Virus record (IMG/VR): IMGVR_UViG_3300022539_000238
Location: 1 to 22,633 of that record
Origin: a virus
Direction: 5' to 3' (one strand)
Length of the DNA stretch: 22,633 bases
Shown here: positions 10,147-21,108 of the stretch, piece by piece
Layout of the letters: each line of letters starts with the position of its first letter
How positions within the stretch are numbered: the stretch's first letter is position 1
Notes under the pieces: generated by a model
Told to the model about the DNA's origin: nothing
What the model saw: the letters and a program-made list of their open reading frames with translations, nothing else
Databases searched by the model: none
Program-made: the position numbers and the translations under genes

Positions 10147-10330
10147 TCTCGGCCTCCTCGTGGATGATCGCCTCCAGCCAATCGGCGGCAAATTTGTACG
10201 CGCTGGCCCTGCCGTCGCTCTGGCCCCCCCAGTATTCACCTGCGTAGTCATCTCTTTCACTGGCGTTTCTTGCTGATATATCGCGTAGGGTCTTAACTAG
10301 TGCCCTGGCGTCCTCGTCTGTTATCATCAT
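10130..10330 (-). CDS. Hypothetical helical protein, 66 aa
   Basis: AAGGAGG lies four bases before the ATG at 10330. The protein starts MMITDEDARALVKTLRDISA, has a central GEYWGGQSDGRASAYKFAAD segment and ends in a helix. The look is of a compact phage helical protein. The start overlaps the stop of the DUF5419-like gene. Confidence 0.65.
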   Translation of the reverse strand: MMITDEDARALVKTLRDISARNASERDDYAGEYWGGQSDGRASAYKFAADWLEAIIHEEAENAQVF

Positions 10331-10485
10331 GCTGCCTCCTTGATAGCCCACACCGCCGCCTCGCTCGGTGTCATGCCGTCATCGTACCAGTCGCGGCATA
10401 GGTAGTCTGGCAGATCGTAGACGCTGCAACCCGCCAGCATGTACACACGGTCATCCACCTCTTTCATCCATTGGTCGAAACTCAT
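10327..10485 (-). CDS. DUF5419-like small protein, 52 aa
   Basis: MSFDQWMKEVDDRVYMLAGC, then SVYDLPDYLCRDWYDDGMTP and SEAAVWAIKEAA, matches the pattern of the DUF5419 group: an aromatic acidic helix, a DLxDY(x)RDxYDDG core and an SxxEAA end. Its function is unknown and it is frequent in phages. AGGAG six bases upstream supports the ATG. The stop overlaps the next ATG. Confidence 0.75.
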   Translation of the reverse strand: MSFDQWMKEVDDRVYMLAGCSVYDLPDYLCRDWYDDGMTPSEAAVWAIKEAA

Positions 10486-10495
10486 CGCTATCTCC

Positions 10496-10554
10496 TCGTT
10501 AGGGTGGGGTGCTCCCGTCCCAGCGCCGGGGCCGGAACGGGATGCGCGGGTTAA
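10496..10554. repeat. Dispersed spacer repeat, copy 1
   Basis: This spacer shares a run of GCGCCGGGGCCGGAACGGGA and most flanking bases with 10788-10847. Here CCCGT pairs with ACGGG around the GC core. It occupies the whole gap between one gene's stop and the next gene's SD. Confidence 0.75.
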
Positions 10555-10781
10555 TCAAAGCAGTCTTTGATAGCCAGTTCCAGTGAGCACTCGTAAACTT
10601 CATATGAGTATGACATGCCGTCAATACCCAGGTGCTCACAGCGATTCTCAAAGTTCACCATAATCCCTGTGTCGCCGAAGCCGGTTTGCGGCACTGTGAC
10701 GAGGGCGGCGATTTCCTGCTTGCACTTTGGACAAACGTGTTTTTCTGTATGCGTCCTCGCCTGCCAATAGTTGCTCATCAT
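10551..10781 (-). CDS. Zinc-knuckle protein, 76 aa
   Basis: C17-x2-C20 lies near the N-terminus (HVCPKCKQEI), and C48, H50 and C65 are possible further ligands. The middle is beta-rich (TGIMVNFENRCEHLG). GAGGAGG lies directly before a double ATG, so either methionine may start. Probably a small metal-binding protein. Partner unknown. Confidence 0.7.
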   Translation of the reverse strand: MMSNYWQARTHTEKHVCPKCKQEIAALVTVPQTGFGDTGIMVNFENRCEHLGIDGMSYSYEVYECSLELAIKDCFD

Positions 10782-10787
10782 TTCCTC

Positions 10788-10847
10788 CTCGTGTAGGGTA
10801 GGGCGCTCCTGTCTCAGCGCCGGGGCCGGAACGGGATGCGTGGATTA
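10788..10847. repeat. Dispersed spacer repeat, copy 2
   Basis: This is the diverged partner of 10496-10554, with about ten substitutions over 58 bases. The GC core is unchanged. Some changes fall in the paired arm and keep pairing in one strand only (G-U). Confidence 0.75.
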
Positions 10848-11111
10848 CTCCTCTGCGAACAGCAATGCAATGCCAAATTGATTGGAATACTCTGCTAGCG
10901 GTATCCATTGGCAGTATTCTGACACCTGTTGTGTATTGAACGCTGCTGATTCCGGCTCAAGGATTATCCAGAATGGTCCAAGAATCTCTTGCATTTCCAA
11001 CGCCGTGTGGGGTTCATTGTCCTTGCGAAAACAATGTCCCTCGGTATCACAGAATATGCCACGCTGTCCTTTGTTGCACCAATTTACAGTTAAAAAGTAC
11101 GCTTCGTCCAT
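10845..11111 (-). CDS. Hypothetical soluble protein, 88 aa
   Basis: GGAGGT with 7-base spacing supports the ATG. MDEAYFLTVNWCNKGQRGIF suggests an N-terminal beta hairpin. FWIILEPESAAF and FGIALLFAEE are further strands. No family recognised and no membrane helix. Confidence 0.7.
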   Translation of the reverse strand: MDEAYFLTVNWCNKGQRGIFCDTEGHCFRKDNEPHTALEMQEILGPFWIILEPESAAFNTQQVSEYCQWIPLAEYSNQFGIALLFAEE

Positions 11112-11274
11112 TTACGTTACCTCCTTTGAATTGGCTACCGTCTCGGTCGCCGTCACGTCGGAACGGGTGAGTGGGCGATAAAAAGCCAATCTCTAATATC
11201 TACCGTTTCCGCTTCTTACCACTGGCTTGACTCTCGCGCCGACGTGACGAGGGCCGAGGCCCTGCGTCGTTTTG
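11112..11274. repeat. Structured intergenic spacer with 11-bp inverted repeat
   Basis: CGTCACGTCGG (11151-11161) pairs with CCGACGTGACG (11239-11249). A small hairpin, AGGGCC-GA-GGCCCT, follows at about 11250-11263. No ORF with an SD is present on either strand. Confidence 0.55.
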
Positions 11275-11478
11275 TCAAGTGATACTTTTGCACCAGCCAT
11301 AGCAATCTACTCTGTGAAGATTCACTAGCCCCTCTGGTGTCTCAATTATGGCGGTGCGGATAGCGCCAGGCCACCGCTTGCGCCCATCTGCTATCTGGGT
11401 AGAGGTCTGGGTAATCTCTCCGCCCAACTCCTGCGCTGCCTGTTGTAGCGATTCCCAGAATTTGCTCATGTCTAACAT
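11275..11478 (-). CDS. Hypothetical 67-aa protein
   Basis: AAGGAGG five bases before the ATG supports the start. An N-terminal helix (MLDMSKFWESLQQAAQELGG) is followed by a basic beta part (RKRWPGAIRTAIIE) and a C-terminal VDCYGWCKSIT with two close cysteines. Function unknown. Confidence 0.7.
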   Translation of the reverse strand: MLDMSKFWESLQQAAQELGGEITQTSTQIADGRKRWPGAIRTAIIETPEGLVNLHRVDCYGWCKSIT

Positions 11479-11533
11479 GTTAACCTCCTTATGAGTATAA
11501 ACTGATAGCCTCCCTCCAGCCTCCCCGGTGGCT

Positions 11534-11746
11534 CTAGACTATTCCCCATTCTTCAGGCATAAAGTCACCTGGCCTGAATCCTTCCGGGGGCTCTGTAAAG
11601 ACCCAACGGGCATTAATACTATCCCAGCGGACTACTCCTCCACCTTGGGTATATGCGTAGTCTGTGTTGTACTTTGGATTGTACGGGCACCCAGGTGCAT
11701 GTTCGCCATCAGTCCATCCGCAAAAACTACAATCTTGCCTTTCCAT
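11534..11746 (-). CDS. Zinc-finger-like protein, 70 aa
   Basis: C6-x2-C9, H16 and C20 form a compact C2HC knuckle (CSFCGWTDGEHAPGC). A tyrosine-rich linker and an aromatic beta part (WVFTEPPEGFRPGD) follow. The ATG at 11746 follows AAGGGGGT. Longer frames upstream read through a spacer hairpin and are rejected. Confidence 0.7.
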   Translation of the reverse strand: MERQDCSFCGWTDGEHAPGCPYNPKYNTDYAYTQGGGVVRWDSINARWVFTEPPEGFRPGDFMPEEWGIV

Positions 11747-11791
11747 TTTTACCCCCTTAGTCCCTCCAGCTTCCCCGGTCGCTCTCGCGTA

Positions 11792-11850
11792 CCCGGCGCA
11801 AGTCGCCGGGCGGGCTGCCGTCGGTTCGGCTGCCGGGTATTGCGGCCCGG
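11792..11850. repeat. Two GC hairpins in an intercistronic spacer
   Basis: CCCGGCG/CGCCGGG (11792-11810) is followed by CCGGG/CCCGG (11833-11850). The second is preceded by TCGGTTCGGCTGCCGGG (11821-11837), which recurs exactly at 12081-12097. Confidence 0.65.
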
Positions 11851-11861
11851 TTGAGGGCTGG

Positions 11862-12065
11862 CTACTTCCCTTGTAGTGAAGCCTTGCATATTTCCAAGTA
11901 GCGTACCCAGGCGATATGTTCCTTTTCAACTGCCGCTTGGTATCCTTCACATATATCCAGGTCCTCAACACAAGACACCTTGCCGTCAGCTACCAGCGCG
12001 TCGTGGATTGCCCATGCTGTTGCCCGCGCGTTGGCGTATTCTATATATGCTTCACTTGCGTTCAT
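11862..12065 (-). CDS. Hypothetical helical protein, 67 aa
   Basis: The ATG at 12065 follows AAAAGGAG. MNASEAYIEYANARATAWAI begins an all-helical protein with two cysteines (VSCVEDLDICEGY) and an end helix ICKASLQGK. No family recognised. Confidence 0.7.
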   Translation of the reverse strand: MNASEAYIEYANARATAWAIHDALVADGKVSCVEDLDICEGYQAAVEKEHIAWVRYLEICKASLQGK

Positions 12066-12080
12066 TGCTCTCCTTTTCTT

Positions 12081-12111
12081 TCGGTTCGGCTGCCGGGCGT
12101 CGATAGCCCGG
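12081..12111. repeat. Spacer hairpin, copy of the 11821-11850 element
   Basis: It shares the 17-base TCGGTTCGGCTGCCGGG with 11821-11837 and folds as CCGGGC/GCCCGG with a 7-base loop. It lies between a stop codon and AAAAGGAG. Confidence 0.7.
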
Positions 12112-12129
12112 TGGCGGGGGGAGAGGGGG

Positions 12130-12345
12130 CTACTTTCCATATAGCAGTCCTAGCAGTCGTGCAATATGCTGCTGGCCGTATTCCACGACCATTATGGCAG
12201 AACACATCTGGCTGCTATTGCTACGAGTGCAACCCTTCTCGGCCAGGTCGTCAATCTCTTCGTTGGCTGCCGCCACTCTCGCTCTGGCGTCGGACAGAGC
12301 AGCTTGCAGCGTGCCCTCAGTTACTACGAATGTTTTCTCAGACAT
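12130..12345 (-). CDS. Hypothetical helical protein, 71 aa
   Basis: AAAAGGAG six bases before the ATG at 12345 sets the start. After MSEKTFVVTEGTLQAALSDA comes a coiled coil (RARVAAANEEIDDLAEKG), then two cysteines and a hydrophobic end (MVVEYGQQHIARLLGLLYGK). No known family. Confidence 0.7.
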   Translation of the reverse strand: MSEKTFVVTEGTLQAALSDARARVAAANEEIDDLAEKGCTRSNSSQMCSAIMVVEYGQQHIARLLGLLYGK

Positions 12346-12405
12346 TGCTCTCTCCTTTTCCGTTCTCTTGCCGCCGCCCTGCGAACTCAAGACGGCGGAT
12401 GATGC

Positions 12406-12636
12406 TTATTCTTTGACTATCACCAATGTGGGCGAAATGCCTGCTCTCGGAAATTGATATGTAAAAGCGAAGCCTTTGTATCGCAATGGCCGCTCATATG
12501 CAAACCATTGCTCCAGTTCCTTCCTCGAAACAGATATACCGATTCCATTAGCCAGCCTCGTCAATGAGCGGCTCCCCACGCCAAATCGCTCGTGTTCGGA
12601 AATTAGTGCCTCCAGCAGTTTCGTTTTGTTGTCCAT
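12406..12636 (-). CDS. Hypothetical 76-aa protein, possible HTH
   Basis: The ATG at 12636 follows AAGGAGG at short spacing. NKTKLLEALISEHERF is a helix, and SLTRLANGIGISVSRKELEQ could be a helix-turn-helix. The end (FTYQFPRAGISPTLVIVKE) is beta. A DNA-binding role is possible but only weakly indicated. Confidence 0.65.
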   Translation of the reverse strand: MDNKTKLLEALISEHERFGVGSRSLTRLANGIGISVSRKELEQWFAYERPLRYKGFAFTYQFPRAGISPTLVIVKE

Positions 12637-12663
12637 TGCCTCCTTCTCTATCTCCTGCGCTAG

Positions 12664-12682
12664 CAGCAGCAGGGGGGCTGCT
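12664..12682. repeat. Short spacer hairpin
   Basis: AGCAG and CTGCT enclose a run of Gs between the 145-residue gene and the next SD, in the same position as the other spacer hairpins. Confidence 0.4.
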
Positions 12683-12685
12683 ACT

Positions 12686-13123
12686 CTATGGAAATACTTT
12701 CCTGAATGCCTCTTCTGGCGTCGTGTTGTAAACGCTGGTGGCCCACACCGCCTGGTGTACCCGGTCGCAAATCGCCACATTGCCCACCCTCACTGTACTG
12801 GTGAGATATGGATCAAATTCGCCGCCTCTTACCTCTAGCACGCCCACGCCGTAATGCCTGGTGAAGGCTTCCGCCGCTGCTACCATTACGGCGCGGGTGA
12901 TAGTGCGGCGAGTTCCAATATACTCGTTCAGGTATTCGCCGCCCTTCAAGTGTGCTGTTTTGTCGGCTACTTCCGTCTCTGTAGGGCCGTCTATCCAGAT
13001 GATATTGACAGATGAGCCCATGCTGAACCGCTTGACGCGGACTGAGAACTTGGTATTGGGATACTCTGCTTTGAGCACCCTGCGAACAGCCTTTGCACTT
13101 TCGGTTGTGTCTTTGTATACCAT
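12686..13123 (-). CDS. LPD29-like domain protein, 145 aa
   Basis: Residues 8-60 (AVRRVLKAEYPNTKFSVRVK, then GSSVNIIWIDGPTETEV) match the LPD29 pattern: a short helix, KFSVR strand, glycine/serine turn, and WxDGPT. LPD domains are found in large polyvalent proteins injected by phages and plasmids and also as stand-alone proteins. Their activity is not established. The C-terminal half (TRAVMVAAAEAFTRHYG and onward) may be a separate small domain. GGAG four bases before the ATG supports the start. Confidence 0.75.
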   Translation of the reverse strand: MVYKDTTESAKAVRRVLKAEYPNTKFSVRVKRFSMGSSVNIIWIDGPTETEVADKTAHLKGGEYLNEYIGTRRTITRAVMVAAAEAFTRHYGVGVLEVRGGEFDPYLTSTVRVGNVAICDRVHQAVWATSVYNTTPEEAFRKVFP

Positions 13124-13132
13124 TCTTCTCCT

Positions 13133-13333
13133 TTACCCCCTCCGCGTCCCGTCAGTGCTAAGAACACCGACAGCCTGCGCTGAGATGACGTATGCTGTTT
13201 TATTCCTGATCATCGCCTGCGCCCGTGCCTGTGTCATCTGCGCAGTTATCATGACGCCGTCCCGCCAGAATTGCACTCTGGAGGTTTCGACATTCTCCGC
13301 GTCTCGCTGCCACTTGGTTGGCTTCTTGTTCAT
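13133..13333 (-). CDS. Basic 66-aa protein
   Basis: GAGGAGGAG precedes the ATG. MNKKPTKWQRDAENVETSRV is basic. VQFWRDGVMITAQMTQARAQ is a strand followed by a helix, and the end is beta plus a basic tail. It could bind nucleic acid, but no family is recognised. Confidence 0.65.
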   Translation of the reverse strand: MNKKPTKWQRDAENVETSRVQFWRDGVMITAQMTQARAQAMIRNKTAYVISAQAVGVLSTDGTRRG

Positions 13334-13350
13334 CTTCTCCTCCTCTGTTT

Positions 13351-13380
13351 CTGCGCCAACGCGGTCGCACGGGGGCGCAG
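13351..13380. repeat. Spacer hairpin related to 14001-14030
   Basis: CTGCGCC (13351-13357) pairs with GGCGCAG (13374-13380). The loop contains CGCGGTCGCA, which recurs in the spacer at about 14001-14025. Confidence 0.6.
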
Positions 13381-13391
13381 TGGCTGAGATG

Positions 13392-13625
13392 CTAGATTGC
13401 TATTGCCTTCGCCAGATGATTGAAAAAGTGCATCACGTCACCGTTGACGAAGTCAATCTTGATTAGCATTTTCTTGATTGCTGCCTGCTCTTGCTTGGTG
13501 GCGATCGTGATGTATTCAACCACGACCGCTAGCGGGATGAGGTTGAAGCCGCTTGCGCCCTCAACCTCAAAGACGTGGTCAGTATCTAATTCCTTCTCTC
13601 CTACGAACTTATTAATCCAAGACAT
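13392..13625 (-). CDS. Hypothetical 77-aa protein
   Basis: AAAAGGAG six bases before the ATG at 13625 sets the start. MSWINKFVGEKELDTDHVFE is followed by a hydrophobic strand/helix region (LIPLAVVVEYITIA) and a helix (KQEQAAIKKMLIKIDF). The hydrophobic part is too short and broken to be a confident membrane helix. Function unknown. Confidence 0.7.
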   Translation of the reverse strand: MSWINKFVGEKELDTDHVFEVEGASGFNLIPLAVVVEYITIATKQEQAAIKKMLIKIDFVNGDVMHFFNHLAKAIAI

Positions 13626-13687
13626 TGCTTGCTCCTTTTGACTTAGTTTACCGTCGGCCACTCCTGATTGCCGGGAAGGATACCGGG

Positions 13688-13984
13688 CTATTTCTCTACC
13701 TGATTGATAAATACTTTTTTGTAGATACGGTGGTCCTTGCCCCGCATCCTTTCCACACGTAAGTGCGGATGCGAAGTGCATTTGAACCACGATGGCACGA
13801 CGAGGTATTGGTAAGCCCAGTCATCTGGTACTATAATGATTAGATCTGCCATATCGTTGCAGTGGCAGGCCGGGAATTTTATCCCGAAAGCTTCCACGCC
13901 CTTGTTTACGCGCTCCACGTTCTCTGCGACGCTATCTATAACGTGGATGGCGCTCTTATGTTTCCCTTCAAATTTGTATCTCAT
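13688..13984 (-). CDS. Hypothetical 98-aa protein
   Basis: AAGGAG with 7-base spacing precedes the ATG at 13984. The protein is basic and mixed alpha/beta: MRYKFEGKHKSAIHVIDSVA, then CHCNDMADLIIIVPDDW and a His/Arg-rich end. Cys-His-Cys at the centre plus later C and H residues could bind metal. No family recognised. Confidence 0.7.
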   Translation of the reverse strand: MRYKFEGKHKSAIHVIDSVAENVERVNKGVEAFGIKFPACHCNDMADLIIIVPDDWAYQYLVVPSWFKCTSHPHLRVERMRGKDHRIYKKVFINQVEK

Positions 13985-14032
13985 TACTCTTCTCCTTATT
14001 CTGCGCTGGCGCGGTCGCATGGGCCGTGCTGA

Positions 14033-14218
14033 TCAAACTGGCTTTATGATAATCATGTCGCTATCATCGTCCTGACAAATAGAATAGAATTGACTGTATT
14101 CCTCACACACAGCCAGCACATGCTGCGCTCGCGGAGATGATACATTGAGCGCTTTGCCTGGCTCGGCAATGACCTCGCCGCTTTCAGGATGTACTATATC
14201 ACATTGAACGAATAACAT
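14033..14218 (-). CDS. Hypothetical 61-aa protein
   Basis: AAGGAG six bases before the ATG at 14218 sets the start; an in-frame GTG at 14269 has no SD. MLFVQCDIVHPESGEVIAEP is a beta hairpin, followed by a helix (RAQHVLAVCEEYSQF) and an acidic-to-hydrophobic end (DDDSDMIIIKPV). Unknown function. Confidence 0.7.
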   Translation of the reverse strand: MLFVQCDIVHPESGEVIAEPGKALNVSSPRAQHVLAVCEEYSQFYSICQDDDSDMIIIKPV

Positions 14219-14924
14219 CTTTTTCTCCTTTTTGAGTAAGTAGATGCTCATGCGCATCTTGCCATCCACCGGCCACCAGTCGGCGGCGACCCGGTCGGTG
14301 TTATTCGCCGAGCATTACTCCGGCACGTCCGTGCGTCCCGGACAACCGATGGACGCCAAGATAAGCGTGAGCCAGTTGGGCCAGCGGCCAGCAGGGGCCG
14401 AAGCCCGCTGCCTGCGCGACTCTTTGACAGATAGATGACTGCGTTGCCTTCCGCTACCACTTCCTACCCATACGCTGGGGCGTTACTCCCAGGCTTCACG
14501 TTCATTCCGGCTTGGGTTTCAGCGCGTCCATTCCTGCGGTGCTCAAATTGCGACTTCGTAATCTGCCGCAACCAGGCCCTGTCTAGGCGGTATGCGCCAA
14601 TCCCAGGCCTCCCGTGGCTTGGCCTAAAGCGGGATGAGTTTGGCCAGAACGTCTACCGGTTGGACCTCACCAATCTGTCATCTATCTGTCAAAGAGCCGC
14701 TGCCTGCGCGTTTTCGTTCCGATGATTAGCAATGCCGGTTCCCCCTTCCCGGCCTCCTCAGCCCGCCACGAGTACTCGCGGTGGCGTTCCCCGTTTGCCT
14801 CACGGCTCCGGCGCAAGTTCCCCGCAGGCGCTCACATTTGCCTGCGTGCTGGATTTTACCAGCCCCCTTGCTAATCATCTTGCTGCCGACGCGTTTTTGT
14901 CCAGGTCGCGCCCCCTGGGAGATA
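14219..14924. other. Long gene-poor island with remnant coding sequence
   Basis: No ORF with an SD is found on either strand. In the leftward frame an open stretch (14831-14697) reads LRRSREANGERHREYSWRAE and looks protein-like, but it has no start and is cut by the inverted-repeat element. Past the element the same frame continues (RWPNWLTLILASIGCPG) to a stop at 14315. I read this as a decayed gene split by an insertion. Confidence 0.45.
14405..14710. mobile_element. MITE-like element: 20-bp inverted ends with 14-bp flanking direct repeats
   Basis: CTCTTTGACAGATAGATGAC (14420-14439) recurs as its exact reverse complement at 14677-14696. Immediately outside, CCGCTGCCTGCGCG occurs in direct orientation at 14405-14418 and at 14697-14710. 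This is the layout of an insertion with a target duplication. The interior (237 bases) has no transposase and several hairpins. It could be a non-autonomous transposable element or, read as RNA, a long 20-bp stem enclosing a structured RNA. A 14-bp duplication is longer than usual for most DNA transposons. Confidence 0.6.
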
Positions 14925-15182
14925 TTAGTCTCCAAAGACCAAGCCTTCCTCGTCCCACTCGACGGTGTAACCCCTGCTTTCGGCGAAGTCCTCTTGACGC
15001 CTTCGCTCATTCACGTCATCGCCCATATCAACGTACTTTTCAAAAACCTTGCCGCTAGGCCAGGTAGCCTTGAACTTCGTCAATCCTGCTTCCATTGTTT
15101 CCTTGATGACTACTGTACCTTTTGACATTTTATTACTCCTTGTTTCTTGTACCATCTTTCCGCCACAGCAAGGACATGTCAT
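14925..15182 (-). CDS. Cysteine-cluster protein with two possible starts, 85 aa
   Basis: GGAGG six bases before the ATG at 15182 gives MTCPCCGGKMVQETRSNKMS. A second SD (AAGGAG, 7 bases) precedes an in-frame ATG at 15126 (MSKGTVVIKE), so both a zinc-half form and a shorter form may be made. The body is amphipathic and acidic (DMGDDVNERRRQEDFAESRG). A CPCC cluster alone cannot complete a zinc site, suggesting dimerisation or redox chemistry. Function unknown. Confidence 0.7.
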   Translation of the reverse strand: MTCPCCGGKMVQETRSNKMSKGTVVIKETMEAGLTKFKATWPSGKVFEKYVDMGDDVNERRRQEDFAESRGYTVEWDEEGLVFGD

Positions 15183-15183
15183 T

Positions 15184-15309
15184 TCACGCCTCCTCACCAC
15201 ACTTGACGCACCTGTACACGACAACGGTAACGTACCGTTTGGTCACCTTACACCACACCCGTTTGAGGGTGCGAACTGCCCATTCACCACAAAGTTTACA
15301 CTTTAACAT
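15184..15309 (-). CDS. Zinc-ribbon microprotein, 41 aa
   Basis: AAGGAGG six bases upstream gives an excellent start. C4-x2-C7 and C34-x2-C37 (with C20 between) form a minimal zinc ribbon: MLKCKLCGEW at one end and YRCVKCGEEA at the other, joined by basic beta strands. Proteins this small often bind RNA polymerase, ribosomes or nucleic acid; which applies here is unknown. It is the first gene of the leftward operon and has one base between its stop and the next ATG. Confidence 0.8.
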   Translation of the reverse strand: MLKCKLCGEWAVRTLKRVWCKVTKRYVTVVVYRCVKCGEEA

Positions 15310-15472
15310 TTCACTCCTCCTTAGGGTTTCTCTCTTGCTCATTCAGATTTAACCGACCCAACCATTGCCAGTTCCTATTTCGTTTCCCTGCTGCTCAATC
15401 GAGTTTCGTTCGGTTCCTATGCGGGCTTGTCATTGTTTTAGTGCCATTGAAAACCTCGCTTTTTACGCAAAA

Positions 15473-15588
15473 CTCCCCGCTTGTGTACGTTGGTGTCTAG
15501 CCAAACGTAGGGCGCTAAGCCTACACAAGAGGGGAGCTTTACCTCCAAGTATGCAATTGAAAACGCCCTATTGAGCGTTTGGCTAGAC
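15473..15588 (-). promoter_or_regulatory. Leader RNA with two interlocked inverted repeats (pseudoknot-like)
   Basis: Stem A is GTCTAGCCAAACG (15495-15507) with its exact complement at 15576-15588, continued by TAGGGCG/CGCCCTA (15508-15514 and 15564-15570). Stem B is CTCCCCGCTTGTGTA (15473-15487) with 15522-15536, one mismatch. One arm of B lies inside the loop of A and the other outside it, so the order is B-A-B-A. Stem A begins where the proximal leftward promoter should start transcription. This fits a regulatory 5' leader for the zinc-ribbon operon. A DNA-level operator or origin is also possible. Confidence 0.6.
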
Positions 15589-15594
15589 GGTCTT

Positions 15595-15623
15595 ATTATA
15601 CTGCATGATTGGAAATAAAGCAA
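15595..15623 (-). promoter_or_regulatory. Proximal leftward promoter
   Basis: TATAAT (15595-15600, leftward) has a partial -35, TTGCTT, 17 bases upstream (15618-15623). The start would fall near 15588, at the foot of the leader stem. The weak -35 suggests activation or weak basal use. Confidence 0.5.
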
Positions 15624-15826
15624 GTTCCCTGCCCACCCGCCTCCTCCAGCGCCTGGGCTATTTCGCCGTCTCCCCTTTCAGTTTACCAGTTACTATTCAG
15701 TCTCTGCGACTTACCGCCTCGGTGGCCGGTCTTTATTTGGCCTTCCGATTGTGCCTTCCTGTTCGCCTTCCGGGGTTTCGGTTGTTAATGTTCCTTTGGT
15801 TCGTTTCCTTCGTTTACTACGCTATA

Positions 15827-15855
15827 ATAATATCATATAACTTACCGGAAGTCAA
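15827..15855 (-). promoter_or_regulatory. Distal leftward promoter
   Basis: TTGACT (15850-15855), 17 bases, TATTAT (15827-15832). It faces the leftward gene cluster and would add a leader of about 500 bases that has no start codon upstream of the second promoter. Confidence 0.65.
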
Positions 15856-15890
15856 GTCTTTTGGGCAAATTGGTCACGGATGGTTGTTTC

Positions 15891-15943
15891 TGCAAGGTTT
15901 CCGACGTGATTTTGCAGGGTTTTTGCGCACTTTTGCAAGGTTC
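15891..15943. repeat. Three direct repeats between divergent promoters
   Basis: TGCAAGGTTT (15891), TGCAGGGTTT (15913) and TGCAAGGTTC (15934) are spaced 22 and 21 bases apart, about two helical turns, so one face of the DNA could bind a protein array. They lie between the distal leftward and the rightward promoters and are likely regulator sites. Confidence 0.5.
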
Positions 15944-16003
15944 TTGGGGATGAAAAGTGGTGAGAATCTATTGACTTGTTTGATTTTCAAGAATTGCCTC
16001 TCG

Positions 16004-16032
16004 TTGACACATCTGCTAAAGTGTGCTATAAT
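16004..16032 (+). promoter_or_regulatory. Consensus rightward promoter
   Basis: TTGACA, 17 bases, TATAAT: a full consensus match. The expected start is at 16039-16041, that is, on or next to the ATG at 16041, so the first gene may be translated from a leaderless mRNA or from an ATG 12 bases further in. Confidence 0.85.
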
Positions 16033-16040
16033 CGGTACAA

Positions 16041-16421
16041 ATGGGGGAACAGATGGAAACGAGCAAATTGAAAAGCATCAATCTCTCCGCCATAGGCGGC
16101 GTAGACACGGCGGTCATCTTGGAAATGGCGCGCGGCTGTCTTGCCGTTCTCACGTCAGCACGCAAGTCAGCGGCACTGTTACTCCCCTGGCCGTGGTCCA
16201 TCAGGATCGCCGAACTCGCCGCCGAGGACTGTCGCACGATGCAAAATGTCCAGCAGTATGGTGGACTCAAAACAGAAGTCCTCGCATCTCTCGCTGACGG
16301 CCAATTTCGCACTGTCTGGCTGCGGGCTGCTGAGCCGGTGGCAATTCTGTCGCGGTATCCGCAGGACGAGGCCGAGCGTGAGGACATAGCACAGAGATAT
16401 TTGGCACTTTTGGAGGACTAG
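16041..16421 (+). CDS. Hypothetical 126-aa protein, first gene of rightward operon
   Basis: The first ATG (16041) is at the predicted transcription start. A second in-frame ATG (16053) follows GGGGGAAC and may be the ordinary start. The protein is helical and soluble: VDTAVILEMARGCLAVLTSA, a hydrophobic helix (ALLLPWPWSIRIAELAAED), and an acidic end (DEAEREDIAQRYLALLED). No HTH is evident. Its position directly behind a strong divergent promoter would suit a regulator, but the sequence does not show this. Confidence 0.75.
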   Translation: MGEQMETSKLKSINLSAIGGVDTAVILEMARGCLAVLTSARKSAALLLPWPWSIRIAELAAEDCRTMQNVQQYGGLKTEVLASLADGQFRTVWLRAAEPVAILSRYPQDEAEREDIAQRYLALLED

Positions 16422-16424
16422 AGG

Positions 16425-16745
16425 ATGTCTATTACACTATTCTGCTGTCCACACTGCAATACCTATTCTCTTGATGCAACTGTGAGGCTATATATCGGCG
16501 CTACTTTGGAACCCCGGCGTGGCAAACTACGAGTAAGTGACGATGCCTCACTACCGGAGGGAATAAGTATTCCATTGGAGGACATTGTGGAAAGCCACTG
16601 CCCAGAGTGTAGCAGGATTACAGAATTAGTTGTTCTGGATGAATGCCCGCACCAATGGAAAGCATGGCGAACAGATGCTTGGGGAGTGCCACATAGCATT
16701 TGTCGGTTCTGTGGTGAAACGCGGAAGGGGAAAATAGTTCTCTGA
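16425..16745 (+). CDS. Multi-knuckle zinc-ribbon protein, 106 aa
   Basis: Three cysteine pairs are visible: CCPHC near residue 8-11, CPEC near 70, and CRFC near 93. ECPHQW near 80 adds a Cys and a His. The product is likely a zinc-bound beta-rich protein. It begins three bases after the previous stop, with GGAGG as SD. Family unassigned. Confidence 0.75.
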   Translation: MSITLFCCPHCNTYSLDATVRLYIGATLEPRRGKLRVSDDASLPEGISIPLEDIVESHCPECSRITELVVLDECPHQWKAWRTDAWGVPHSICRFCGETRKGKIVL

Positions 16746-16753
16746 GATGTGGT

Positions 16754-16826
16754 TCGGGGCCAGGCGGCGGGTCTTGCATACCCGTTCTCCTTTACTCGCG
16801 AAAGCGGGGTTTCCGCTTGGCCCCGA
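16754..16826 (+). ncRNA. tRNA-like three-stem fold between genes
   Basis: TCGGGGCC pairs with GGCCCCGA as a closing stem. Inside, CGGGT-CTTGCAT-ACCCG is a 5-bp/7-base arm with U33 and a UGC triplet, exactly an anticodon-arm shape. AAGCGG/CCGCTT sits where a T-arm would stack on the acceptor. There is no D-arm and no TTCRA T-loop, so it is not a normal tRNA gene. It may be a degenerate tRNA, a tRNA mimic or an intercistronic processing structure. Confidence 0.35.
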
Positions 16827-16857
16827 CACTAAGTCTAAGTTTTAGGAGGTCAGTAAA

Positions 16858-17034
16858 ATGACACACATAGTTACATCAGCTGGATTCATCATCGTGGCTG
16901 TCGTCGTCGCCTTTGGCTTGACGCTGCTAGCGACCGTGATGATAGCCAACTTCAAGGCTGCTAGGCAAGAGCGAGAGGGACGCGAGCCGCCACCAATGCA
17001 TCCAGACGATGCAGAATTCAAGAGAGGAGCATAA
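16858..17034 (+). CDS. Small membrane protein, 58 aa
   Basis: The SD is TAGGAGGT. MTHIVTSAGFIIVAVVVAFG through LTLLATVMI forms one long membrane helix (about residues 8-32), followed by a basic then acidic cytoplasmic tail (RQEREGREPPPMHPDDAEFK). The stop overlaps the next ATG as TAATG. It is the first of a run of four membrane-anchored products. Confidence 0.75.
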   Translation: MTHIVTSAGFIIVAVVVAFGLTLLATVMIANFKAARQEREGREPPPMHPDDAEFKRGA

Positions 17035-17171
17035 TGGATACCTTCACGATCATCGTGATTGCACCAACCGTCGTGGCGGCACTGGTAGTAGTCGCTCTAT
17101 GGTTTCGTGGCAGAGTGACCGACGTCCGTTCTCATCCTGGCGGAGGGTGGGAAATGGATATAAAGGAGTGA
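17034..17171 (+). CDS. Small membrane protein, 45 aa
   Basis: MDTFTIIVIAPTVVAALVVV gives a single membrane helix, then FRGRVTDVRSHPGGGW and MDIKE. GAGGAG four bases upstream supports the ATG. The layout (short periplasmic start, one helix, basic loop) matches the preceding gene, so the two may act together. Confidence 0.7.
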   Translation: MDTFTIIVIAPTVVAALVVVALWFRGRVTDVRSHPGGGWEMDIKE

Positions 17172-17173
17172 GG

Positions 17174-17422
17174 ATGAATACAAACAAAAAGTTTTTGAGT
17201 CCTGAGCAGACTGGCGGTCCAACGATCTTCTGCCAGAATCACAGTGAATATCTGGCAATCGAGGGCGACCAGATACGCATCTTCCACATTGCGCATCTAG
17301 CAAAGGTGCTCGGTGATCAATGGCAGGCGGGAGTCACTCCACAGGAACACGCCTCACTGATTCTTCTCGCGTGTTGTGGCAAAGGATTGTTTGAATGGTT
17401 AGGTACAGGAGGTACGGCATAA
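17174..17422 (+). CDS. Hypothetical soluble protein, 82 aa
   Basis: AAGGAG lies five bases before the ATG. MNTNKKFLSPEQTGGPTIFC is followed by a beta section (YLAIEGDQIRIFHIAHLA) and a helix ending LLACCGKGLFEWLG with paired cysteines. The stop and next start overlap as TAATG. Unknown function. Confidence 0.7.
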   Translation: MNTNKKFLSPEQTGGPTIFCQNHSEYLAIEGDQIRIFHIAHLAKVLGDQWQAGVTPQEHASLILLACCGKGLFEWLGTGGTA

Positions 17423-17811
17423 TGACTAGAACCAGCAATTTAGGATTGCCCATTATGTTATTCGGGATGCTCATTTTGTTTGGCGTCATCGCGCTGGTGA
17501 TGCTTGGTCAAGTCCAAGATTTGGAACTGCCATATCCAGTGCCAACTGTTGTGTTTGGCTTAAAGCCAGAGCATCATGGCGAGTTAAATAGGATAGGCAT
17601 ACCTACTGCCAGATATGACGAGTTACGGAGAGAATACGAAGGTGATTCAGTCGCACAGCAGCAAATAGATGTATATGATCCTGCCACGGAATACCACAAA
17701 AGATTGAGGGAGTACGTTGAGGCGTTCAAGTTAAGCGACGGGGAAAAAATCACGGAATTGAAGGATTGGTTCGAGGAACATTATCCCGATATCCATATAG
17801 GAGGTAAATAG
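17422..17811 (+). CDS. Membrane-anchored protein, 129 aa
   Basis: MTRTSNLGLPIMLFGMLILF continues as a single N-terminal membrane helix (to about residue 30). A charged soluble domain follows (RYDELRREYEGDSVAQQQ) and ends in an acidic helix (KDWFEEHYPDIH). The SD is AGGAGGT. The first 10 residues and helix pattern recur in the next gene, but the soluble domains differ. No motif is recognised. Confidence 0.7.
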   Translation: MTRTSNLGLPIMLFGMLILFGVIALVMLGQVQDLELPYPVPTVVFGLKPEHHGELNRIGIPTARYDELRREYEGDSVAQQQIDVYDPATEYHKRLREYVEAFKLSDGEKITELKDWFEEHYPDIHIGGK

Positions 17812-17812
17812 A

Positions 17813-18262
17813 ATGACGAGGACAAGTTCATTAGGGACTATGGTACTGTTGTTCGTTATGACGTTGATCATAAGTGCTTTTGCTCTCACTATGCTCAGCA
17901 GCGCCAGTATCACTTTGCCAGCCACCGGTGCTACAGTTCACCAGGCCGCTGCAATAGACTGGCTGCGACCTGACCAGGTACCTGTGCCGAACAATCTGAT
18001 TATCAGTGCACATGCCGCCAAGCATCACGGAGACACTGAGCAAATATACGCAAATCTCCTGCAAGGCAAATGCGCTGAGGTTGCCAAGTTCTGCGGTGGG
18101 TCTGAGCAGGAGTTCGCGTACTTTTGCGTAGACCCAGTGACCGGCATTGTTGGCGCTATACTACAGATCGGCGATGAGATAACGACGGGTTACTACGAGA
18201 AGCCTGGCTCAGAATACTGGGTCAAGCGTGTGCCGCGTGAGAGATGGGAGGTGTGCAAATGA
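17813..18262 (+). CDS. Membrane-anchored protein, 149 aa
   Basis: MTRTSSLGTMVLLFVMTLII gives the N-terminal membrane helix, a near copy of the previous gene's start. The soluble part has NNLIISAHAAKHHGDTEQIY, a helix with paired histidines, then a beta-rich end (FAYFCVDPVTGIVGAILQIG). The layout loosely recalls small toxin-like or BrnT/DUF4258-like folds but no catalytic set is secure. It overlaps the next ATG as ATGA. Confidence 0.7.
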   Translation: MTRTSSLGTMVLLFVMTLIISAFALTMLSSASITLPATGATVHQAAAIDWLRPDQVPVPNNLIISAHAAKHHGDTEQIYANLLQGKCAEVAKFCGGSEQEFAYFCVDPVTGIVGAILQIGDEITTGYYEKPGSEYWVKRVPRERWEVCK

Positions 18263-18483
18263 CTGCTGCCAATGTGAAAAAAATAACTACCGAGGAATTC
18301 TGGCAAGAGGCTGAGACGTGGCTTGATGGTGTCGCGAATATGGTCTCGCATAGGTGTTATCAGGAACACAGCATGGTAGGGATACGGGCAATTCAACGTG
18401 ATGTGCGCAAGCATCTCACCTGGATTGACGAGGCGCTATTGCAGATCGAGTTGCGGGAAGCGAAGTCTGTGAAGGAGAACTAA
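18259..18483 (+). CDS. Hypothetical helical protein, 74 aa
   Basis: GGAGGT six bases before the ATG at 18259 sets the start. MTAANVKKITTEEFWQEAET is followed by two amphipathic helices and a charged end (IELREAKSVKEN). No family. Confidence 0.65.
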   Translation: MTAANVKKITTEEFWQEAETWLDGVANMVSHRCYQEHSMVGIRAIQRDVRKHLTWIDEALLQIELREAKSVKEN

Positions 18484-18789
18484 ATGTCGGTCAGTATTTG
18501 CGTGGAGGCACATCGTAGAATCAGTGAGGCCGACATGGAATACGTGGCTATTTACAACAGTCTTGTTTCCAAGGGAATCAAGCCGCCAGCGGCAGTAGTC
18601 AAACATCTACAGGGAGCCTTGGGTAACAACAACTTTTTCCCGGATGAGAAAATTACTATATCACCCGACACTGAGATGATAGCTATCAGTGTTGGGGGTG
18701 CGGGCGATGCCAGACATAGTGGTGGCATGATTATTAAGATTGCCGACTTGCCGCCAGGGACTGAGGCGCTGAGAATCTATATGAGTTAA
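18484..18789 (+). CDS. Hypothetical 101-aa protein
   Basis: AAGGAG precedes the ATG, which directly follows the previous stop. MSVSICVEAHRRISEADMEY is mostly helical. The C-terminal half is beta-rich (KITISPDTEMIAISVGGAGD, GGMIIKIADLP). Unknown. Confidence 0.7.
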   Translation: MSVSICVEAHRRISEADMEYVAIYNSLVSKGIKPPAAVVKHLQGALGNNNFFPDEKITISPDTEMIAISVGGAGDARHSGGMIIKIADLPPGTEALRIYMS

Positions 18790-18823
18790 GGCTATCCTGG
18801 CACACAGATGGAGGCGGTTTAGA

Positions 18824-19207
18824 ATGACAGGTTATCATATCACATTGGGATACAACGGCGTAGCGTGCATTGACTACGATGATATGTGGGAAATCCTTAA
18901 ACAGAAGGTGCGTGAAATCTGCGACCAGCCGCGAGTTATAATTGCCGAGGCCCGCAGACTTGGCGCGCCAGAAGCTTGCTCAAAAGGGTGTTGCAGTTTG
19001 GATACCTATGCCGATAATTATGCAGAGTCCTTTGAGACCTATGGACATCCTATCTCAATAATCAACCGAGGTGAAGGCGATCGTCAAATTATGCAATTAG
19101 CATCAACTGCTGGCCCCATTAAGTATCATGTCCGCAGGGCATTTGTGCGACTTTTAATTGAGGCAATGCACAGAGAAGAAATTGAGGTAAGCCTGATCGT
19201 TGCCTAA
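18824..19207 (+). CDS. Hypothetical 127-aa protein
   Basis: GGAGG nine bases before the ATG supports it. MTGYHITLGYNGVACIDYDD starts a mixed alpha/beta protein. EACSKGCCSLDTYADNY contains three close cysteines, and RAFVRLLIEAMHREEIEVS is the C-terminal helix. No family recognised. Confidence 0.7.
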   Translation: MTGYHITLGYNGVACIDYDDMWEILKQKVREICDQPRVIIAEARRLGAPEACSKGCCSLDTYADNYAESFETYGHPISIINRGEGDRQIMQLASTAGPIKYHVRRAFVRLLIEAMHREEIEVSLIVA

Positions 19208-19254
19208 TAATAGTATCGTTGAGTTGGGCTAGTTGCGGTACGCAAAAGGAAAGA

Positions 19255-19560
19255 ATGATGGCTTCTGACATCATCATGATGCTCATCCTCAGCGCCACTG
19301 CTTGCATTGCCGTGCTGCTCATGGCCAGAGTTCCCGATGTGCCAGGTCATTACACTGATCCCACCTGGATCGTGGCCGCGATGTCGGCGGTGCTGATGGT
19401 GCTTGGGTTCTATACGGTGACGTGGTTGTGTCGGATGTTCCGAGCATTTGAACGACTACTGCTCATCCTGACTGGCGTCGAGCCAGAAGAAGCACAGTTT
19501 CACCTTCGCGCGACGCTGAAACGAATGCGGAAGTTGATCGAGGAGTTGACACACGGATGA
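19255..19560 (+). CDS. Two-pass membrane protein, 101 aa
   Basis: AAAGGA before a double ATG at 19255. The first helix is SDIIMMLILSATACIAVLLM. A loop (RVPDVPGHYTDPTW) leads to a second helix (IVAAMSAVLMVLGFYTVTWL). A basic cytoplasmic tail contains a helix (HLRATLKRMRKLIEEL). No holin signature such as a charged C-terminal cluster typical of lambda S is evident, though size and topology do not exclude a holin. Confidence 0.7.
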   Translation: MMASDIIMMLILSATACIAVLLMARVPDVPGHYTDPTWIVAAMSAVLMVLGFYTVTWLCRMFRAFERLLLILTGVEPEEAQFHLRATLKRMRKLIEELTHG

Positions 19561-19940
19561 AATTGGTTGAGGTTGCTCGGCAGATCGTAATCACTGATGT
19601 CGATGTTCTCTCTCCAAGACTGGGGGAGTCGCTGATGTTCGCTGTTAGATATGCACGCCGACAGAGCTTGGAACCCGATTTGGTTCTATCACGTTCTGAC
19701 TTTGAGAGACTGATCGATTACTGGCCCCGATTTTACCTGGAAGGCCCTGTTGTGAAGACTCGTGATAAGGATATTTGGTTTTGGCTGAGGCGATTCTTTG
19801 CCAGAAAGAGGAGAATGCCGCCATTGTTGTCATTATCATTGAACGACGAGATGCTGGAGAGCTTCAAAGAACGAATGCTAGAAAAGCAAGCAATCCCGAT
19901 TGATGGCGTCTGGGTTCCTGTGGATATATTGGGTGAGTAA
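19557..19940 (+). CDS. Hypothetical 127-aa protein
   Basis: It overlaps the previous stop by 4 bases (ATGA). MKLVEVARQIVITDVDVLSP starts a soluble basic protein. FWLRRFFARKRRMPPLLSLS is a basic amphipathic middle, and the end (KQAIPIDGVWVPVDILGE) is beta. Unknown. Confidence 0.7.
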   Translation: MKLVEVARQIVITDVDVLSPRLGESLMFAVRYARRQSLEPDLVLSRSDFERLIDYWPRFYLEGPVVKTRDKDIWFWLRRFFARKRRMPPLLSLSLNDEMLESFKERMLEKQAIPIDGVWVPVDILGE

Positions 19941-19958
19941 TTCTCTAATGGGTGAGCA

Positions 19959-20555
19959 ATGAAGGAATGCTTACGCCGCCTCCGCACTCCCGGTCCCTGG
20001 CTATTCAGACAAGCCTGGTCTGGCTATGCTGAGGTCAAGCGCCTCCACCCCGGCGCAGAGGCATGGAGACGCAGTGGCGAGGGACTACGCGGGGCTTGGG
20101 AAGCCTTCATGCAGTCCATTCTCAGCCCCACGGCATGGACAGCACTCTGCTTGCTACTAGAGCGTCAATATGACCTGCGCTGGCTGTGGATCAAGCCTGG
20201 CGGCTATTTCTACACTAAAGCCGGGAATCGCCGCAAGGTCATTCGCAAGAAACTCGTCCCGCGCATCATCACGGTGACACTCCGCGACCGTCTGGCTCAC
20301 GCTGAACACATCTACTACGAATCGCTCAAATCGGAAGTCTTTGATTCCAATGCCGTCGTAGTGATGACCCTGGCTCTCGCGGGTTCTATCACTGGCGGTA
20401 AGTTCTCTGCCGCCACAGCACACATCAAGCGCGAACCATTGAGACAGAGACGTAAGCGGTGGCGGCTCTGGCTGCCGAGCAGGACTTCTAGTCTGCGCTA
20501 TCTCAGAGATATTGGCTTCCTGCAGCAGTCAGACGATGATGGACCGCTGCTTTGA
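19959..20555 (+). CDS. Basic Trp-rich hypothetical protein, 198 aa
   Basis: The ATG has a weak SD (GGGTGAG). The protein is strongly basic, with many tryptophans (PGPWLFRQAWSGYAEVKRLH, DLRWLWIKPGGYFY). A central helix (LRDRLAHAEHIYYESLKSEV) is followed by a hydrophobic strand (AVVVMTLALAGS) and a basic tail (REPLRQRRKRWRLWLP). It may bind nucleic acid. Family unknown. Confidence 0.65.
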   Translation: MKECLRRLRTPGPWLFRQAWSGYAEVKRLHPGAEAWRRSGEGLRGAWEAFMQSILSPTAWTALCLLLERQYDLRWLWIKPGGYFYTKAGNRRKVIRKKLVPRIITVTLRDRLAHAEHIYYESLKSEVFDSNAVVVMTLALAGSITGGKFSAATAHIKREPLRQRRKRWRLWLPSRTSSLRYLRDIGFLQQSDDDGPLL

Positions 20556-20573
20556 TAATGTAAGGATTCTGTA

Positions 20574-20888
20574 ATGATACGAGAACTTCAATCCCAAGTG
20601 AAACACTTGTATGCCGAACGCGGCTATGATGCAAAGGTGCAGACTCTCCTCCTTGGCGCAATGGAGGAAATGGGCGAATTGGCTCAGGCGATTCTTTTGA
20701 CGGAGTGTGAAGATTTCAAGCCGTCGGCTAAGAAGATGCCTTTGATCTGGGCAGATGCCCGTGACCCTGGGCGGCGCATCGTTGCTCATGAAGTAGGCGA
20801 TTGCATTACTTATCTTCTGGCATTGTGCAATCGTCTTGGGATTGAGCCTTACTTTAAGTGGCTCCATGACAATGACCCTCGGATTTGA
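20574..20888 (+). CDS. MazG-like nucleotide pyrophosphohydrolase, 104 aa
   Basis: E31-E32-x2-E35 (AMEEMGELAQA) and the downstream E73-x2-D76 (HEVGDCITYLLAL) form the EExxE...ExxD metal-binding pattern of the MazG/all-alpha NTP pyrophosphatase family. Such enzymes split NTPs or alarmone-related nucleotides to the monophosphate and pyrophosphate. Phage versions are thought to alter host stress nucleotides or clear modified dNTPs. It is the last gene of the rightward operon. Length fits a single MazG domain. Confidence 0.85.
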   Translation: MIRELQSQVKHLYAERGYDAKVQTLLLGAMEEMGELAQAILLTECEDFKPSAKKMPLIWADARDPGRRIVAHEVGDCITYLLALCNRLGIEPYFKWLHDNDPRI

Positions 20889-20987
20889 GTCTAGAGGCTC
20901 CCCCTGAGTCAACCTACCATGGCAAGTACCAGGGTCAGACCGGCCCCACACCCGCGCGTCCCTAGTTTTTTCTACCACTGTCTTTTC

Positions 20988-21016
20988 TTGACAGATTCGA
21001 TAAACTCTGGTATAAT
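20988..21016 (+). promoter_or_regulatory. Consensus promoter for a small RNA
   Basis: TTGACA, 17 bases, TATAAT, a full consensus match. The predicted start (about 21023) coincides with the first base of a GNRA hairpin. Confidence 0.85.
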
Positions 21017-21022
21017 ATAGTT

Positions 21023-21108
21023 GCGTCGAAAGACGCTGGTGGATGGCACAGAGTAGCCTACTACTCGGCCCCCTATGCCCTGGTGAAAACCAGGGCATTT
21101 GCTTTGCT
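21023..21108 (+). ncRNA. Three-hairpin small RNA
   Basis: Three perfect stem-loops follow the promoter: GCGTC-GAAA-GACGC (21023-21036), GAGTAG-CCTA-CTACTC (21051-21066) and ATGCCCTGG-TGAAAA-CCAGGGCAT (21075-21098), the last followed by a modest T-rich run as a terminator. The only frame (ATG at 21043) lacks an SD. I do not recognise a known RNA family. It may be a regulatory sRNA or a decoy. Confidence 0.6.

What the first reader, a model, noticed from the sequence alone, without database searches (positions are those of the whole stretch)
15473..15588. Interlocked inverted repeats at the head of the leftward operon
Two long inverted repeats (20 paired bases with a 5-base bulge, and 15 with one mismatch) are arranged B-A-B-A, so they can form a pseudoknot or alternate. 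The outer stem starts at the predicted transcription start of the proximal leftward promoter. Downstream, at 15447, a five-codon frame (MALKQ) with GAGG as SD overlaps a second short frame. Together this resembles an attenuator or riboswitch-like leader of unknown type.
Basis: partly seen in the sequence, partly recalled or inferred. Interest (0 to 1): 0.75.

Follow-up and report, generated by a model that had tools for sequence, protein, structure and literature searches.

The report
Interlocked-stem leader RNAs in a phage
An uncultured bacterial virus appears to start at least five, probably six, of its messages with differently spelled RNA leaders that share one unusual design, two long stems threaded through each other, probably a built-in control on how the first gene is translated.

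Summary
On the minus strand, from the predicted +1 of a TTGCTT-17-TATAAT site, stem B (20/20 pairs, 5-nt bulge) and stem A (18/19 pairs) interlock B5'-A5'-B3'-A3'. A longer record of the same virus (109,607 b) has five more leaders of this layout at promoter-like sites. They precede a GIY-YIG gene, a LAGLIDADG gene, a weakly scored HNH gene, a primase-polymerase and an unknown gene. Interlock scores of the six (own scoring) are 88, 87, 86, 75, 72 and 55. At 4000 other sites of the virus the 99.9th percentile is 57 and the maximum 73. E1 (this one) and E2 are homologous; with arms aligned by hand, 11 of 36 pair columns changed on both sides and stayed paired. The other four share layout, not clear sequence. 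No Rfam, phage or relative-virus match was found. Most likely mechanism (inferred): B folds first, A later; in three leaders A buries the first Shine-Dalgarno, a kinetic or topological gate on translation. E1 fits this least well. A riboswitch or terminator-type attenuator has little support. A very structured, about 700-nt stretch without convincing genes lies 0.5 kb downstream.

The parts
15618..15623 (-). -35 box TTGCTT of proximal leftward promoter-like site
   Evidence: sequence
15595..15600 (-). -10 box TATAAT (17-nt spacer); predicted +1 about 15588
   Evidence: sequence
15564..15588 (-). B5' arm: 13 nt outer (15588-15576), 5-nt bulge (15575-15571), 7 nt inner (15570-15564)
15541..15563 (-). 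loop L1, 23 nt
15522..15540 (-). A5' arm, 19 nt
15515..15521 (-). loop L2, 7 nt
15495..15514 (-). B3' arm, 20 nt
15488..15494 (-). loop L3, 7 nt
15469..15487 (-). A3' arm, 19 nt, ends GGGGAGUUUU
15430..15447 (-). minicistron MALKQ, GAGG as SD; its stop overlaps the next ATG (ATGA)
15395..15433 (-). minicistron MTSPHRNRTKLD; a TTG frame 15398-15375 overlaps its stop
15339..15365 (-). minicistron MVGSVKSE (9 nt after the end of the TTG frame); its stop overlaps ATG 15342 of the frame that runs into the zinc-ribbon-like gene
15184..15309 (-). 41-aa CxxC...CxxC protein, first sizeable gene of the leftward operon (SD AAGGAGGA)
   Evidence: (no Pfam match above cut-off)
15827..15855 (-). distal leftward promoter-like site TTGACT-17-TATTAT

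Best explanation
A leader RNA design reused through one virus, defined by shape rather than sequence. Each copy starts near its own promoter's predicted +1 and carries two long helices interlocked B5'-A5'-B3'-A3'. Shown by computation: the layout, its recurrence, the compensatory changes between E1 and E2, and the order of folding expected from minimum-energy folds. Inferred: B closes as soon as B3' is transcribed and traps A5' in its loop; A3', which in three of six leaders (E2, E4, E5) contains the Shine-Dalgarno of the first cistron, is then free for ribosomes; later A3' pairs with A5', by unzipping B or by threading into a pseudoknot, and closes the ribosome site. The leader would thus limit translation of the first cistron to young mRNA, or hold it at a low set level. 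In E1 the A helix ends 21 nt upstream of the MALKQ start, beside its ribosome site rather than over it, and the signal would reach the 41-aa gene through a chain of mostly overlapping minicistrons.
For: Six of 102 promoter-like sites in this virus score 88, 87, 86, 75, 72 and 55; background of 4000 sites outside the leaders: median 35.5, 99.9th percentile 57, maximum 73. Dinucleotide shuffles reaching the observed score, E1-E6: 0, 0, 0, 0, 0 and 1 of 1000. E1-E2 local alignment score 64 against 21.7 +/- 4.3 (0 of 300); on the arms aligned without gaps, two-sided pair changes 1 of 10 (B outer), 2 of 7 (B inner), 8 of 19 (A), with one pair changed on one side and one broken; on the plain MAFFT alignment every B cell with letters is paired. 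Before A3' is made, the minimum-energy fold holds B wholly or in part in all six (20/20, 13/20, 15/15, 9/9, 13/13, 11/11); afterwards A is in the minimum-energy fold in E3-E6. SD inside A3' right before the start in E2, E4, E5. Downstream genes: GIY-YIG 1.1e-12, LAGLIDADG_1 2.9e-17, Prim-Pol 5.6e-37, HNH 0.0017 (below cut-off). Precedents: T4-type homing endonuclease genes have RNA helices over the ribosome site (PMC3014915, PMC2988022; passages); the MS2 leader allows translation before the final fold forms (PMC6733600; passages).
Against: In E1 itself the used SD is outside A, and B (-57.3) beats A (-52.3) in nested folding; E2 also ends with B, and in E6 the two are equal (-45.9, -46.0). 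E1, E3 and E6 have starts 21, 20 and 14 nt beyond A3'. Three other endonuclease-like genes of this virus have no such leader (scores 36, 0 and 34). +1 sites are predicted. The family was seen in one virus only; E3-E6 are not found by a model of E1+E2, so covariation rests on one pair of paralogues. On the automatic alignment A is out of register (80% and 69% of cells paired) and the covariation measures do not stand out (73 of 500 shuffles reach them). E6 (score 55) is marginal: 15 of 4000 background sites reach 55. Energies ignore pseudoknots, temperature and ribosomes.
Confidence: 0.42

Rival explanations
1. A permanent pseudoknot or 5' cap: B holds the 5' end from +1 and A locks it, protecting phage mRNA from 5'-end-dependent decay; translation effects are secondary.
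For: B starts at the 7th or 8th nt after the -10 box in E1, E3 and E6 and spans the predicted +1 in E2. A bulge or internal loop inside B recurs in E1, E2, E3 and E5 (arm blocks).
Against: B starts at about +11 to +16 in E4 and E5. Protection should need only a simple hairpin (recalled, no call); interlocking and buried SDs are unexplained. L3 of 7 nt against a 20-bp B in E1 looks tight for a full pseudoknot (inference).
Confidence: 0.24
2. RNase III-type processing site: long A (19-36 nt in E1-E5) and B duplexes are cut to separate the 5' end or free the ribosome site.
For: Long near-perfect duplexes, especially E4 28/28 and E5 34/36.
Against: Interlocking is not needed. The virus record shows no RNase III (0 matches to PF14622; the control rings in 8 of 14 genomes), so a host enzyme is assumed.
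Confidence: 0.1
3. Transcription attenuator: A is a terminator and B the antiterminator.
For: A3' ends in a U run in E1, E2, E4 and E5 (UUUUGCGU, UUUUGUCA, UUUUGUGU, UUUUUUGUGU).
Against: Loop of 34 nt in E1, U run inside the stem, no U run in E6 and a weak one in E3. Arms interlock but do not share bases, so B does not simply compete with A. The start codon follows at once in E4, after 2 nt in E2, and lies inside A3' in E5.
Confidence: 0.1
4. put-like cis antiterminator that binds the elongating polymerase.
For: Position just after promoter-like sites; E1 heads a leftward run of frames of about 15 kb (read by eye).
Against: putL and putR share sequence and consist of two stem-loops in about 70 nt (PMC9378689, passages). 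Here most leaders share no clear sequence and the stems interlock.
Confidence: 0.06
5. DNA-level signal (operator, recombination or replication site) rather than RNA.
For: Inverted repeats near a divergent promoter region; the cumulative GC skew turns at about 15.5 kb.
Against: Arms start near the predicted +1; six copies with different sequence, whereas sites for one protein would be alike; the skew turn coincides with the change of gene direction.
Confidence: 0.03

Closest known systems
RBS-sequestering RNA structures of T4-type homing endonuclease genes (I-TevI, segB, Aeh1 mobE)
   Same: Phage; endonuclease genes of several families; SD inside an RNA helix (E2, E4; also the primase leader E5).
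   Different: There, for I-TevI and similar cases, the structure forms only on transcripts from upstream promoters, and a late promoter is placed so that its transcripts lack it (PMC2988022 passages). Here the promoter-like site lies before the whole structure, a second interlocked helix is present, and non-endonuclease genes use it too.
MS2 maturation-gene leader and type I toxin mRNAs (hok, aapA3): kinetically ordered folds
   Same: An early fold gives way to a later, translationally inert fold (PMC6733600 passages).
   Different: aapA3 closes by a 5'-3' interaction of the whole message and is paired with an antisense RNA; here the two folds interlock within the leader, and no antisense RNA was looked for.
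T4 gene 32 translational pseudoknot
   Same: Pseudoknot-type pairing in a phage mRNA leader (PMC3014915 passages).
   Different: Gene 32 has one leader bound by its own protein, with an A+U-rich stretch; here there are very long stems, six leaders and no binding sequence common to all.
HK022 putL/putR
   Same: Structured RNA downstream of phage promoters.
   Different: Two stem-loops with shared sequence.
epsC (EAR; the second name recalled) and STAXI pseudoknot motifs
   Same: Bacterial RNA motifs with pseudoknots (PMC2864571 passages).
   Different: No Rfam match in the window or in the pieces holding E2-E6.

Membership tests
H-type RNA pseudoknot (layout) | two helices interlocked 5'-S1-S2-S1'-S2' | tested here: met
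   six leaders
H-type RNA pseudoknot (layout) | both helices present in the same molecule | not testable with these tools
   needs probing; nested folding cannot show it
T4-type RBS-sequestering hairpin | SD or start codon inside a helix | tested here: inconclusive
   met in E2, E4, E5; not in E1, E3, E6
T4-type RBS-sequestering hairpin | promoter placed so that its transcripts lack the inhibitory structure | tested here: not met
   promoter-like site precedes the whole structure in all six; an additional promoter inside a leader was not looked for beyond the promoter scans
Intrinsic-terminator attenuator | short-loop GC stem followed by an unpaired U run | tested here: not met
   34-nt loop; scan of 14000-17500 lists no terminator at A (it allows loops of 3-8 only)
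Intrinsic-terminator attenuator | terminator and antiterminator share bases | tested here: not met
   A and B arms do not overlap
Riboswitch | conserved aptamer sequence among members | tested here: not met
   of 15 pairs only E1-E2 aligns far above shuffles (0 of 300); E1-E4 3 of 300 and E1-E3 15 of 300 are weak, the other 12 pairs 51-295 of 300; no Rfam match
HK022 put RNA | two stem-loops in about 70 nt with shared sequence | tested here: not met
   definition passages
Any Rfam 15 family | covariance-model match | tested here: not met
   0 matches: window at gathering, 14000-15920 at E up to 5, L084 and L087 at gathering, L085 1-4000 at gathering
Kinetic leader (MS2/hok type) | early fold replaced by a later one | tested here: inconclusive
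   B in the minimum-energy fold before A3' in 6 of 6 (E2 in part); A in the final fold in 4 of 6, not in E1 or E2

The most novel reading that the evidence does not exclude
A topological RNA timer used genome-wide by one virus: a co-transcriptional stem closes a loop round the anti-SD strand, so the SD-hiding helix can form only by threading or unzipping. This gives every new mRNA a built-in translation window set by stem lengths rather than by sequence, ligand or protein.
Probability: 0.2. Interest if true: 0.85.

Novelty: new variant of a known kind. Interest (0 to 1): 0.6.

Why it matters
A virus that reuses one RNA shape with different letters in front of unrelated genes points to control by folding path alone, which sequence-based RNA family searches miss; none of the six leaders matches Rfam. 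If the gate is real it is a simple, protein-free way to limit endonuclease and primase synthesis, and a ready test case for co-transcriptional folding of interlocked helices. Four literature searches (37 of the 94 papers found were listed, counted per search) listed no paper whose title or abstract start describes such a leader family; the library holds only open-licence PMC papers.

Tried and rejected
Tried without result: blastn of E1 (with flanks), E2 and E4 leaders against 50,697 phage records (no match; E3, E5 and E6 were not tried); E1 DNA and the 85-aa neighbour protein in 35 viral records with TerL 48-91% identical (one 14-base match at E 0.11, L083, with no such stems seen around it; no protein match, and no positive control in that call); related-locus scans with the 85-aa protein, primase, GIY-YIG protein and E3 protein, each finding only this virus; covariance model R1 (E1+E2, stem B) over 301 Chloroflexota genomes (0 of 301, stricter filters, no positive control) and 70 held sources (only E1, E2 and their reverse complements).

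Scan of relatives: 497 promoter-like sites in 102 loci (1.26 Mb, partly overlapping loci) and 69 sites in 17 loci (13 newly fetched, and L110-L113, which were already). The three best (85, 78, 74) were looked at and set aside: L082 is an array of palindromic repeats (only short frames there), L054 lies inside a 367-aa reading frame, L018 has a strong A but a weak B and a different layout before a 99-aa frame. The next best score 57 or less. Of the 35 nearest records, 13 were fetched whole or nearly whole; the others were held as the loci returned round TerL, which for short contigs is the whole contig.

Considered and dropped: a second copy of the B motif in L086 (inside open frames); CsrA-type GGA boxes between the two promoters (9 GGA against 8.1 in shuffles); amber recoding suggested by a CUA tRNA (TAG ends 18 of 67 mechanical frames of 200 aa or more, a rough test). 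Helix coordinates typed were off for E2-E4 and were corrected; only values are used. The leader strings of E2-E5 begin with the last base of the -10 box, those of E1 and E6 with the base after it (seen); positions relative to +1 in this report allow for that. The contig coordinates above 87,100 are shifted by 125 because two pieces were joined without finding their overlap; they are not used.

Full report
The observation. The window is an IMG/VR virus record of 22,633 bases. At the head of the leftward operon, on the minus strand, stem B (15588-15564 with 15514-15495) has 20 of 20 pairs with a 5-nt bulge, and stem A (15540-15522 with 15487-15469) has 18 of 19. The arms interlock. B5' begins at the 7th nt after TATAAT of a TTGCTT-17-TATAAT site, the predicted +1. 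The RNA of this strand folds far better than shuffles (z -4.5); the other strand does not (z -1.7). MALKQ and its overlapping neighbour frame are there.

A longer record of the same virus. The 85-aa neighbour protein leads to IMGVR_UViG_3300022538_000472, 109,607 bases. Window 9928-22633, compared through two overlapping pieces, is 99.99% and 99.89% identical to it; by coordinates the window is the reverse complement of its end, though window 1-9927 was not compared. Its TerL (named by its matches to annotated terminase large subunits) has 35 relatives of 48-91% identity in other viral contigs and more at 27-32% (capped at 80). In genome contigs four relatives were found: two Chloroflexota assemblies at 55-56%, an Anaerolinea assembly at 31% and a Planctomycetota assembly at 30%. 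The host is probably in Chloroflexota (inference).

A family inside one genome. A scan for promoter-like sites (-10 at least 5 of 6, at least 9 of 12 in all) followed by interlocked helices (own scoring: A-U 2, G-C 3, G-U 1, mismatch -5) gave 102 sites in the record (six pieces). Six stand out, named with the last base of the -10 box: E2 88 (L084 6661), E4 87 (L084 18403), E5 86 (L084 9488), E1 75 (window 15595 minus), E3 72 (L087 7169), E6 55 (L085 1974 minus). At 4000 random sites of the same virus, leaders excluded, the 99.9th percentile is 57, 15 sites reach 55 and one reaches 70; that one is the window stretch near 14.2-14.4 kb described in the notes. Dinucleotide shuffles of each leader reach the observed score in 0, 0, 0, 0, 0 and 1 of 1000 cases for E1-E6. 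E6 alone would be a weak case; five are strong.

Anatomy. B pairs: E1 20/20, E2 20/20, E3 15/15, E4 9/9, E5 13/13, E6 11/11. A pairs: 18/19, 20/20, 20/21, 28/28, 34/36, 8/8. B is split by a bulge or internal loop in E1, E2, E3 and E5. A3' contains the SD directly before the start in E2 (GGAGG, AUG), E4 (GGGGAG, GUG) and E5 (AAGGAG, GUG, then two minicistrons with ATGA overlaps before the primase; read by eye). In E1, E3 and E6 the start lies 21, 20 and 14 nt beyond A3'.

Homology and covariation. E1 and E2 align with score 64 against 21.7 +/- 4.3 (0 of 300 shuffles); of the other 14 pairs the best are E1-E4 (3 of 300) and E1-E3 (15 of 300). A pattern drawn from both occurs in the viral collection only at E1 and E2 (it was made from them, so this shows rarity, not independence). 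With arms aligned without gaps, 11 of 36 pair columns changed on both sides and stayed paired, 1 on one side, 1 is broken, and 23 are the same. On the sequence-only MAFFT alignment every B cell with letters is paired, with 3 two-sided changes, but A falls out of register, and the overall covariation measures do not clearly exceed shuffles (73 of 500). The A result therefore depends on the arm-wise alignment. A model of E1+E2 does not find E3-E6, so those share layout only, by great divergence or by convergence.

Genes served. E2: GIY-YIG (1.1e-12). E4: LAGLIDADG_1 (2.9e-17). E5: Prim-Pol (5.6e-37) with PriCT_1. E6: HNH (0.0017, below cut-off). E3: no Pfam family. E1: a 41-aa CxxC...CxxC protein with only sub-threshold Pfam matches, several of them to zinc-binding domains. 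Other endonuclease-like genes lack the layout: L084 12333 score 36, L084 15721 score 0, window GIY-YIG gene (homing endonuclease by PHROGs) score 34 (the two L084 genes were called HNH-like by eye, and the Pfam scan of the first gave helix-turn-helix matches). So it is not an endonuclease attribute as such.

Mechanism. Folding the RNA as far as the start of A3' gives B in all six, in E2 its outer 13 pairs. With A3' added, nested minimum-energy folding holds A in E3-E6 (a tie in E6) and B in E1 and E2. I read this as an ordered fold: B first, A second. Where A carries the SD, the order means open, then closed. The interlocking matters because B closes a loop round A5', so A3' must thread or wait for B to open; this step is inference. 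For E1 the case is weaker: its A does not cover the MALKQ site and B is the more stable fold. It may act as a 5' structure beside the ribosome site, passed on through mostly overlapping minicistrons to the 41-aa gene.

Comparison. T4-type phages hide endonuclease ribosome sites in RNA helices (PMC3014915 and PMC2988022, passages), but with a late promoter whose transcripts lack the helix; that feature is not met here. MS2 and type I toxin mRNAs use ordered folds (PMC6733600, passages). The put RNAs are two-stem-loop elements that share sequence (PMC9378689, passages). The T4 gene 32 pseudoknot was called possibly the only viral example used in translational autoregulation (PMC3014915, passage; a 2010 statement). 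Nothing in Rfam matches. Four searches of the paper library listed no such leader family (I saw listings, and passages of five papers: PMC3014915, PMC2988022, PMC6733600, PMC9378689, PMC2864571).

Limits. One virus; predicted promoters; nested energy models; no expression data; relatives scanned are mostly fragments. The claim that these are real, selected RNA leaders is strong (about 0.9); the claim about how they work is moderate.

Noticed in passing
window 14930-14200, minus strand: About 700 nt with no convincing frame (by eye) and very strong structure: MFE -318.7 kcal/mol against -279.2 +/- 7.9 for 20 shuffles (z -5.0); no Rfam match at E up to 5, no phage blastn match. Possibly a new large structured RNA.
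   Followed up: partly
window 14372-14207, minus strand: A seventh interlocked pair at the 3' end of that stretch (score 73): its A3' covers the AUG of the frame 14215-14033. It is not among the best promoter-linked sites, so no promoter-like site lies directly before it.
   Followed up: partly
window 14416-14439 and 14677-14700: 24-nt inverted repeat, 96% complementary, 237 nt apart, enclosing most of a plus-strand 96-aa frame without Pfam match; could be a small inserted element or a long RNA helix.
   Followed up: partly
window 21599-21689: tRNA-like gene with CUA anticodon (called Pyl); TAG nevertheless ends 18 of 67 mechanical frames of 200 aa or more in the pieces examined, so no sign of recoding in this rough test.
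   Followed up: partly
window 15826-15620, minus strand: 206 nt between the two leftward promoter-like sites with only 10% T, so a very U-poor leader.
   Followed up: no
L004 8810-13387: A 1525-aa frame that looks like a portal protein interrupted by an intein (read by eye, no family search made).
   Followed up: no
L018 150-345: In a TerL relative, a leader with a GC hairpin, a competing pairing, a terminator-like stem with U run and a long hairpin before a 99-aa frame; a candidate attenuator of another kind (by eye).
   Followed up: no
window 10481-10556 and 10774-10850: Duplicated segment of about 77 nt, 84% identical (its core also).
   Followed up: no
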